DNA of 64,000 bases from Aptenodytes patagonicus (Eukaryota; Chordata; Aves; Sphenisciformes; Spheniscidae): assembly GCF_965638725.1 (NCBI RefSeq), contig NC_134975.1, forward strand, positions 935,179 through 999,178. The letters are read 5' to 3'. A model generated the notes under the pieces. That model did no database searches, was not told where the DNA came from, and saw only the letters and a program-made list of their open reading frames with translations. This document shows, in pieces, positions 36,781 to 37,215 of this stretch. Made by a program: the position numbers and the translations under genes. Every line of letters starts with the position of its first letter. Positions within the stretch are counted from its first letter, which is position 1.

Positions 36781-37215
36781 GCGAGAGGAAAATGAAGTAC
36801 GTTGCAAGTAATTAGTTTTAAGCAAATCATTTCAAATGGAAACTTATAGGTAAAGCCTAATGAAGTGCAGAGGGGGGGAAAAAAAAAGCCTCTTTTTTAT
36901 TGCTTGGTAGGTAGCAAGTAGACACAGCAATATTTTACTGTTGAGAGAATAAATTAATTAATATATCTGTAGCTAGCAACTACAATGGCTCCATGGATGA
37001 CTGCATTTAAAGGAGATATATGTATCCAGTCTCATTGGTGTTGTTAACAAGAGTGATAATAAAGATGAAAAGGATAAGAAAGATAAAAAGATCAGCCGGC
37101 TCGTACTCCTTACTGCGGCTAAATTGCGCGGATTTTCTAATGGCTGCGTCTTGTTGACTCTCCACAAACTCCTTTTTTTTTTTTTAGAGTCAGACTTCAT
37201 TAAGTGACTTTATTT
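36730..37215. promoter_or_regulatory. Broader conserved-looking block around HOTAIR element
   Basis: About 480 bp of mostly homopolymer-poor AT-rich sequence, with GCAAGTAATTAG, TTAAGCAAATCATTTC, AAGCCTAATGAAG and AATTAATTAATATATC as homeodomain-type sites. Likely the full extent of an enhancer-like element containing the HOTAIR-matching core. Confidence 0.45.
36918..37080 (-). other. HOTAIR-orthologous conserved element
   Basis: Read on the minus strand, 37080-37041 aligns without gaps to a 40-nt stretch of the human lncRNA HOTAIR as I recall it (about 33 identities, ending in the palindrome TTGTTAACAA). The block 36960-36918, starting TAATTAATT and containing GTAAAATAT and GTCTAC, aligns to the next conserved HOTAIR stretch. 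The spacer is 80 nt here and 81 nt in HOTAIR. Order, strand and position (antisense, between HOXC12 and HOXC11, about 7 kb past HOXC12) all match the large terminal HOTAIR exon. Established knowledge: a vertebrate conserved noncoding element underlies part of HOTAIR, with a HOXD paralogue. Transcription and splicing here are not shown, and I did not recognise the 5' PRC2-binding exons. Confidence 0.75.

What the first reader, a model, noticed from the sequence alone, without database searches (positions are those of the whole stretch)
36918..37080. HOTAIR-orthologous element between HOXC12 and HOXC11
Seen: on the minus strand two blocks (37080-37041 and 36960-36918) match human HOTAIR, recalled from memory, in the same order, with an 80 versus 81 nt spacer. 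The first block is ungapped with about 33 of 40 identities. Known: HOTAIR is antisense in this same spacer in mammals, is usually described as mammal-restricted as an RNA, and overlaps an older vertebrate conserved element with a HOXD counterpart. Inference: this avian-type genome keeps the ancestral element, so it could be a cis-regulatory element, an unannotated antisense RNA, or both.
Basis: partly seen in the sequence, partly recalled or inferred. Interest (0 to 1): 0.85.

Follow-up and report, generated by a model that had tools for sequence, protein, structure and literature searches.

The report
Bird copy of HOTAIR's ancestral DNA
A bird's HOXC gene cluster still carries short pieces of DNA that match the mammalian HOTAIR RNA gene, and nearby a piece shared with the HOXD cluster, which suggests that the DNA is older than the RNA made from it in mammals.

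Summary
Window 37013-37078 is the best-scoring match to Rfam HOTAIR_2 among the places scored in its own 1.35-Gb genome, though below Rfam's gathering score. It lies between HOXC12 and HOXC11, and the HOTAIR strand is the minus strand. A second block, HOTAIR_1 at 36931-36962, sits beside it: clear against local shuffles, not seen genome-wide. The genome is a bird's (feather keratins). The 36.8-37.25 kb stretch has no credible HOXD counterpart. The element shared with HOXD is 31 nt at 39403-39433. Its 19-nt core, one base left free, occurs without mismatch at three places in the genome: the HOXD12-11 spacer, this spacer and an inverted assembly copy of HOXC. It fits the 32-nt HOTAIR element of Nepal et al. 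[quoted passage not shown] I read both as ancestral cis-regulatory DNA, later transcribed in mammals. No clear RNA-structure signal; bird transcription untested. New member of a known kind. Boldest open reading: the 39.4-kb core is a direct NR6A1-type switch for posterior Hox timing.

The parts
37013..37078 (-).
   Evidence: the model itself reads on the + strand, HOTAIR RNA would read on the minus strand; below gathering score
36918..36962 (-).
   Evidence: for; against, genome-wide
39403..39433 (.). 31-nt element shared with the HOXD12-HOXD11 spacer, 26 of 31 identical; core CAAAGTGAAGGTCAAGTTA at 39415-39433; most likely the 32-nt HOTAIR/HOXD element of Nepal et al. 2020
29829..30068 (+). 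HOXC12 exon 2 (homeodomain), 5' end approximate; flanking gene
48670..49353 (+). HOXC11 exon 1 reading frame (ATG at 48670, exon end approximate); flanking gene

Best explanation
The finding marks the bird counterpart of DNA that in mammals lies inside the HOTAIR gene. Two elements of the HOXC12-HOXC11 spacer are kept: the HOTAIR_1/HOTAIR_2 block at 36918-37080 and, 2.3 kb away, the HOXC/HOXD paralogous element at 39403-39433. They most likely work as cis-regulatory DNA, enhancer- or silencer-like sites bound by transcription factors that help set HOXC11/HOXC12 expression in the posterior trunk, hindlimb and tail bud. Mammals later transcribed this DNA as HOTAIR. Shown here: homology of the main block, position, its top rank in the genome search, a core shared only with HOXD at exact match, no clear RNA-structure signal. 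Inferred: factor binding, enhancer activity, target genes and the order of events.
For: HOTAIR_2 match and genome-wide rank. Distances: 6973 nt from the HOXC12 stop, 11629 nt to the HOXC11 ATG. The 19-nt core with one free base occurs without mismatch at three places, all in HOXC or HOXD 12-11 spacers, where about 0.04 chance hits are expected at equal base frequencies. Letters shared with the Rfam consensus are motif-like: the GTTAAC palindrome, a YMATAAA-type site (TAATAAA here, TCATAAA in Rfam) and GATAAG; TNAAGGTCA lies in the 39.4-kb core. Motif names are recalled. The Rfam models carry no base pairs. Folding of three minus-strand stretches gives z 0.56, -1.43 and -1.06. Nepal et al. report enhancer chromatin at the element in human and mouse, bidirectional transcription in human, and cite forelimb activity of the mouse HoxD region (main text parts 1-4 of 6 read).
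Against: Both Rfam matches are under the curated thresholds. HOTAIR_1 does not stand out genome-wide. The HOXC/HOXD spacer alignment alone is reached by 8 of 300 shuffles. With one mismatch allowed the core pattern gives 7 places and its reversed control also 7; the control's exact hits are not shown apart. No bird chromatin, expression or reporter data. Nepal et al. cite that deleting the mouse HoxD element gave no phenotype. He et al. 2011 searched a chicken assembly with models of the HOTAIR exons and found no orthologue (section 11). Only one bird genome was seen here.
Confidence: 0.7

Rival explanations
1. A true HOTAIR gene: this bird transcribes a spliced antisense RNA through the element and the RNA acts, in cis or on HOXD in trans.
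For: Right spacer and strand. The minus strand of the 39.4-kb element and the sense strand of the HOXD copy form a strong duplex, -41.4 kcal/mol against a minimum of -28.6 in 500 shuffles; Nepal et al. propose such pairing.
Against: The duplex follows from homologous DNA read on opposite strands. No other HOTAIR-named Rfam family is among the 36 matches up to E 10 in the spacer. No clear structure signal. He et al. 2011 found HOTAIR exon orthologues in placental mammals and not in chicken, platypus or zebrafish (section 11). Mouse HoxC deletion had little effect on HoxD genes (Schorderet and Duboule, passages).
Confidence: 0.12
2. Both: an enhancer that also makes an unspliced antisense or bidirectional enhancer RNA, with no function of the RNA letters.
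For: Nepal et al. report bidirectional transcription around the human element.
Against: Not testable here; no bird RNA data.
Confidence: 0.15
3. Chance similarity of A+T-rich DNA to a short model.
For: Matches below gathering scores; HOTAIR_1 fails genome-wide; the genome search with HOTAIR_2 also rings, below cut-off, in 8 of 14 prokaryote controls.
Against: HOTAIR_2 gives the top-ranked hits of the genome search, at the expected place, and exceeds all 200 shuffles by a wide margin.
Confidence: 0.03

Closest known systems
HOTAIR-overlapping 32-nt CNE and its HOXD11-HOXD12 paralogue (Nepal et al. 2020, PMC7139118)
   Same: Same spacers of HOXC and HOXD, about the same length, one copy in each spacer; a bird HOXC copy is what that paper lacked.
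   Different: The main-text parts I read give no letters for it, and supplements were not available.
Rfam HOTAIR_1 and HOTAIR_2 (RF01904, RF01905)
   Same: Both match side by side between HOXC12 and HOXC11.
   Different: Scores below gathering (46.5 of 60; 21.2 of 44).
HOTAIR lncRNA of mammals
   Same: Spacer, and strand of the homologous letters.
   Different: No evidence of a transcript; no other HOTAIR-named Rfam family among the spacer's matches.
HOXA-cluster lncRNAs reported in birds (HOTAIRM1, HOXA11-AS1, HOTTIP; Gardner et al. 2015, PMC4378963, passages)
   Same: Mammalian Hox antisense RNA loci with conserved pieces in birds.
   Different: Those are HOXA. In that main text 'HOXC' has 0 occurrences, and the six 'HOTAIR' strings that I saw are all HOTAIRM1.

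Membership tests
HOTAIR CNE (Nepal et al. 2020) | About 32 nt, one copy between HoxC11 and HoxC12 and one between HoxD11 and HoxD12 | tested here: met
   39403-39433 against HOXD L011 (reverse complement) 4531-4561, 26 of 31; core at exact match only in these two spacers and the inverted HOXC copy. The spacer alignment alone is reached by 8 of 300 shuffles
HOTAIR CNE (Nepal et al. 2020) | Same letters as the published element | not testable with these tools
   No letters in the main-text parts read; supplement look-ups are capped at 0
HOTAIR CNE (Nepal et al. 2020) | Enhancer chromatin and transcription | not testable with these tools
   No bird functional data held
Rfam HOTAIR_2 | Score at or above gathering (60 bits) | tested here: not met
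   46.5 bits, E 2.2e-8; 0 matches at gathering. Homology is well supported but it is not a member by the curated threshold
Rfam HOTAIR_1 | Score at or above gathering (44 bits) | tested here: not met
   21.2 bits; not in the genome-wide list of 40
HOTAIR lncRNA gene | Homologous DNA between HOXC12 and HOXC11, antisense orientation | tested here: met
HOTAIR lncRNA gene | Other conserved exons present | tested here: inconclusive
   No other HOTAIR-named Rfam family among 36 matches up to E 10 in the spacer; exons without Rfam models were not tested
HOTAIR lncRNA gene | Spliced antisense transcript | not testable with these tools
   No RNA data
HOTAIR lncRNA gene | PRC2/LSD1-related function on HOXD | not testable with these tools
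   No functional data

The most novel reading that the evidence does not exclude
The ancestral unit is DNA, not RNA: a duplicated nuclear-receptor-type response element (TNAAGGTCA followed by an imperfect direct repeat, AGGTCA-AGTTA) kept in the HOXC12-11 and HOXD12-11 spacers. It is bound directly by NR6A1/GCNF or a relative and holds group 11-12 genes silent until the trunk-to-tail transition. HOTAIR in mammals would then be a by-product of transcribing this silencer/enhancer.
Probability: 0.08. Interest if true: 0.75.

Novelty: new member of a known kind. Interest (0 to 1): 0.42.

Why it matters
He et al. [quoted passage not shown] Nepal et al. 2020 found the paralogous element in jawed vertebrates but not in bird HoxC, and suspected missing assembly. 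A bird HOXC cluster carrying both elements indicates that the DNA predates the split of mammals and birds. That makes the dispute over cis versus trans HOTAIR action testable in an animal where the DNA is present and the RNA can be checked. The shared core offers a concrete candidate site for direct control of posterior Hox genes by NR6A1, which a 2024 review calls currently unclear.

Tried and rejected
One search gives only purine-rich or weak matches (two at E 0.013); in the spacer-to-spacer comparison the second-best match, 31.9 bits, opposite strand, A-rich, touches the block's edge at 37068-37090. A 148-N gap in the HOXD spacer is a caveat. Rejected: conserved RNA structure (137, 19 and 28 of 200 shuffles fold at least as well). 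Rejected as evidence: the strong HOTAIR-strand/HOXD-strand duplex, since homologous DNA read on opposite strands pairs anyway. Led nowhere: searching papers for sequence letters (0 papers; 10 papers, none on Hox by title); Amandio et al. 2016 (find only: one reference, nothing useful); the Hoxd RVIII literature (listings; passages of PMC3091776), where the passages seen do not place RVIII in the 12-11 spacer.

Not done: no other bird or reptile genome was searched; viral, metagenome, GTDB, phage and plasmid collections were not scanned; supplements of papers were not available. That a bird HOXC copy is not in print rests only on the listings (5 of 5 listed; 14 of 14; 3 of 3; 15 of 113) and on the passages cited, in one open-licence library.

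Full report
What the window is. The window carries HOXC13, HOXC12, HOXC11 and HOXC10 reading frames on the + strand. Pfam supports four of the six frames given; the first exons of HOXC12 and HOXC10 have no Pfam hit and are named by my own recognition. The window is G000:C27:935179-999178 of a 1.352-Gb assembly in 618 contigs. The organism is a bird: a search for Pfam PF02422 returned 150 keratin places, all over the cut-off, with 150 of 380 candidates scored. Of the three loci fetched I translated two (L043, L044), and they read a classic feather keratin, a recognition from memory.

The observation. At Rfam's gathering thresholds the window gives no match. With E-values, HOTAIR_2 matches 37013-37078 with 46.5 bits and E 2.2e-8 in the 18.5-kb spacer (gathering 60), and HOTAIR_1 matches 36931-36962 with 21.2 bits and E 4.3 (gathering 44). 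In a 301-base search E is 3.6e-10 and 0.07. These E-values count all 4227 families. Local alignment of the printed consensus letters puts the best place of the 64-kb window for each model at these coordinates. Scores are 51 and 35, against maxima of 32 and 28 in 200 dinucleotide shuffles of the spacer. Over the whole genome HOTAIR_2 ranks this place and its inverted duplicate first (31.3 bits each, E 2.4e-4), then 22.3 bits (62 of 159463 candidates scored; 8 of 14 prokaryote controls ring at E up to 10, none over the cut-off). HOTAIR_1 gives 40 listed places genome-wide and the window is not among them (81 of 1308379 candidates scored), so block 2 stands on its place beside block 1. The gap of 80 nt is confirmed for the window.

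Strand. A HOTAIR siRNA, found in five papers (listing) and read in one of them (PMC6461983, passages), reads in the direction of the window's minus strand if, as is usual, the RNA-sense strand is printed.

The HOXD question. HOXD lies on C6. The HOXD12-HOXD11 spacer was fetched. Comparing the two spacers, the best match between the genes is 39403-39433 against HOXD L011 (reverse complement) 4531-4561, 26 of 31 identical on the same strand. Alone this is modest: 8 of 300 shuffles reach its score. The 19-base core with one free base occurs without mismatch at three places in the genome: the HOXD spacer, this HOXC spacer and the inverted HOXC copy. About 0.04 chance hits are expected at equal base frequencies. 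Four more places appear at one mismatch; the reversed control pattern gives seven places with up to one mismatch, its exact hits not shown apart. The pattern was made from the pair, so this supports paralogy but is not a blind test. The HOXD copy begins two bases after a 148-N gap, which hides its upstream flank.

Comparison with print. Nepal et al. 2020 (PMC7139118; main text parts 1-4 of 6 and passages) describe a 32-nt element, in an intron of Ensembl HOTAIR transcripts or an exon of an intron-retained one, eight bases from a splice site. Paralogues lie between HoxC11-HoxC12 and HoxD11-HoxD12 in the jawed vertebrates examined, except in teleosts and birds. For birds they suspect an unassembled HoxC cluster. 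On the minus strand CCGCCCACCCAG follows the element (39402 to 39391, letters), which could be a splice acceptor; this is only suggestive. He et al. [quoted passage not shown] with a later kangaroo search they propose origin in marsupials. Their chicken result goes against mine unless their assembly lacked the region, which the passages do not say. Yu et al. 2012 (PMC3541083, section 9 and passages) find exons 4-6 in a kangaroo. Gardner et al. 2015 (PMC4378963, passages) report HOXA lncRNAs in birds and blame many losses on the assembly of microchromosomes.

Mechanism. The letters shared with the Rfam consensus look like transcription-factor sites: the palindrome TTGTTAACAA, a YMATAAA-type HOX/CDX site at 37057 and GATAAG at 37073-37078 (motif names recalled). 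A GATA-type site at 37054 is in the window only. TNAAGGTCA occurs once in each spacer, at 39420 here, in both cases inside the shared element. RNA folding of the minus strand is not unusual. I therefore favour cis-regulatory DNA that was later transcribed in mammals. Nr6a1 binds a direct repeat of AGGTCA with no spacing or an extended half site, its loss activates posterior Hox genes early, and whether it acts on them directly is unclear (PMC10909835, passages). Loss of Nr6a1 shifts Hoxd11 rostrally and raises Hoxc12 (PMC9755267, passages). The repeat here is imperfect, so this is a lead only.

A caution on the assembly. Within C27:806000-1018999 the HOXC region is present twice as inverted arms, 807021-873694 and 946641-1013269, 98.1-99.2% identical in three aligned pieces, with N runs at several arm ends. 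A falsely placed second haplotype is my likelier cause (inference).

Verdict. The element is a new bird member of a known conserved system, with an untested but direct route to questions on the origin of HOTAIR.

Noticed in passing
window 49404-49454; HOXD11 at G000:C6:50794402-50794451: A 51-nt stretch in the first intron of HOXC11 (or just after exon 1) is 88% identical to the same place in HOXD11. The genome search returned three matches only: this place, the inverted HOXC copy and HOXD11.
   Followed up: partly
G000:C27:807021-873694 and 946641-1013269 (the window lies on the right arm): The HOXC region is duplicated as inverted arms at 98.1-99.2% identity, with N runs at several arm ends. 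Likely a misplaced second haplotype, but a true palindrome is not excluded.
   Followed up: partly
RF01904 and RF01905 against the window's + strand, 36931-37078: The Rfam HOTAIR_1 and HOTAIR_2 models appear to run on the strand opposite to HOTAIR RNA.
   Followed up: partly
window 2-480, 2538-3775, 7934-8078, 12208-12471, 41392-41715: Minisatellite and microsatellite arrays, most on the HOXC13 side and one inside the HOXC12-HOXC11 spacer.
   Followed up: no
window 39391-39402, minus strand: A splice-acceptor-like CCGCCCACCCAG directly after the shared element, roughly at the published distance of eight bases to a HOTAIR splice site.
   Followed up: no
G000:C20, C26, C2, C124, C157, C548, C559: Very regular arrays of keratin genes (for example every 4112 bases at the start of C2), a sign of recent tandem amplification or of assembly repeats.
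   Followed up: no
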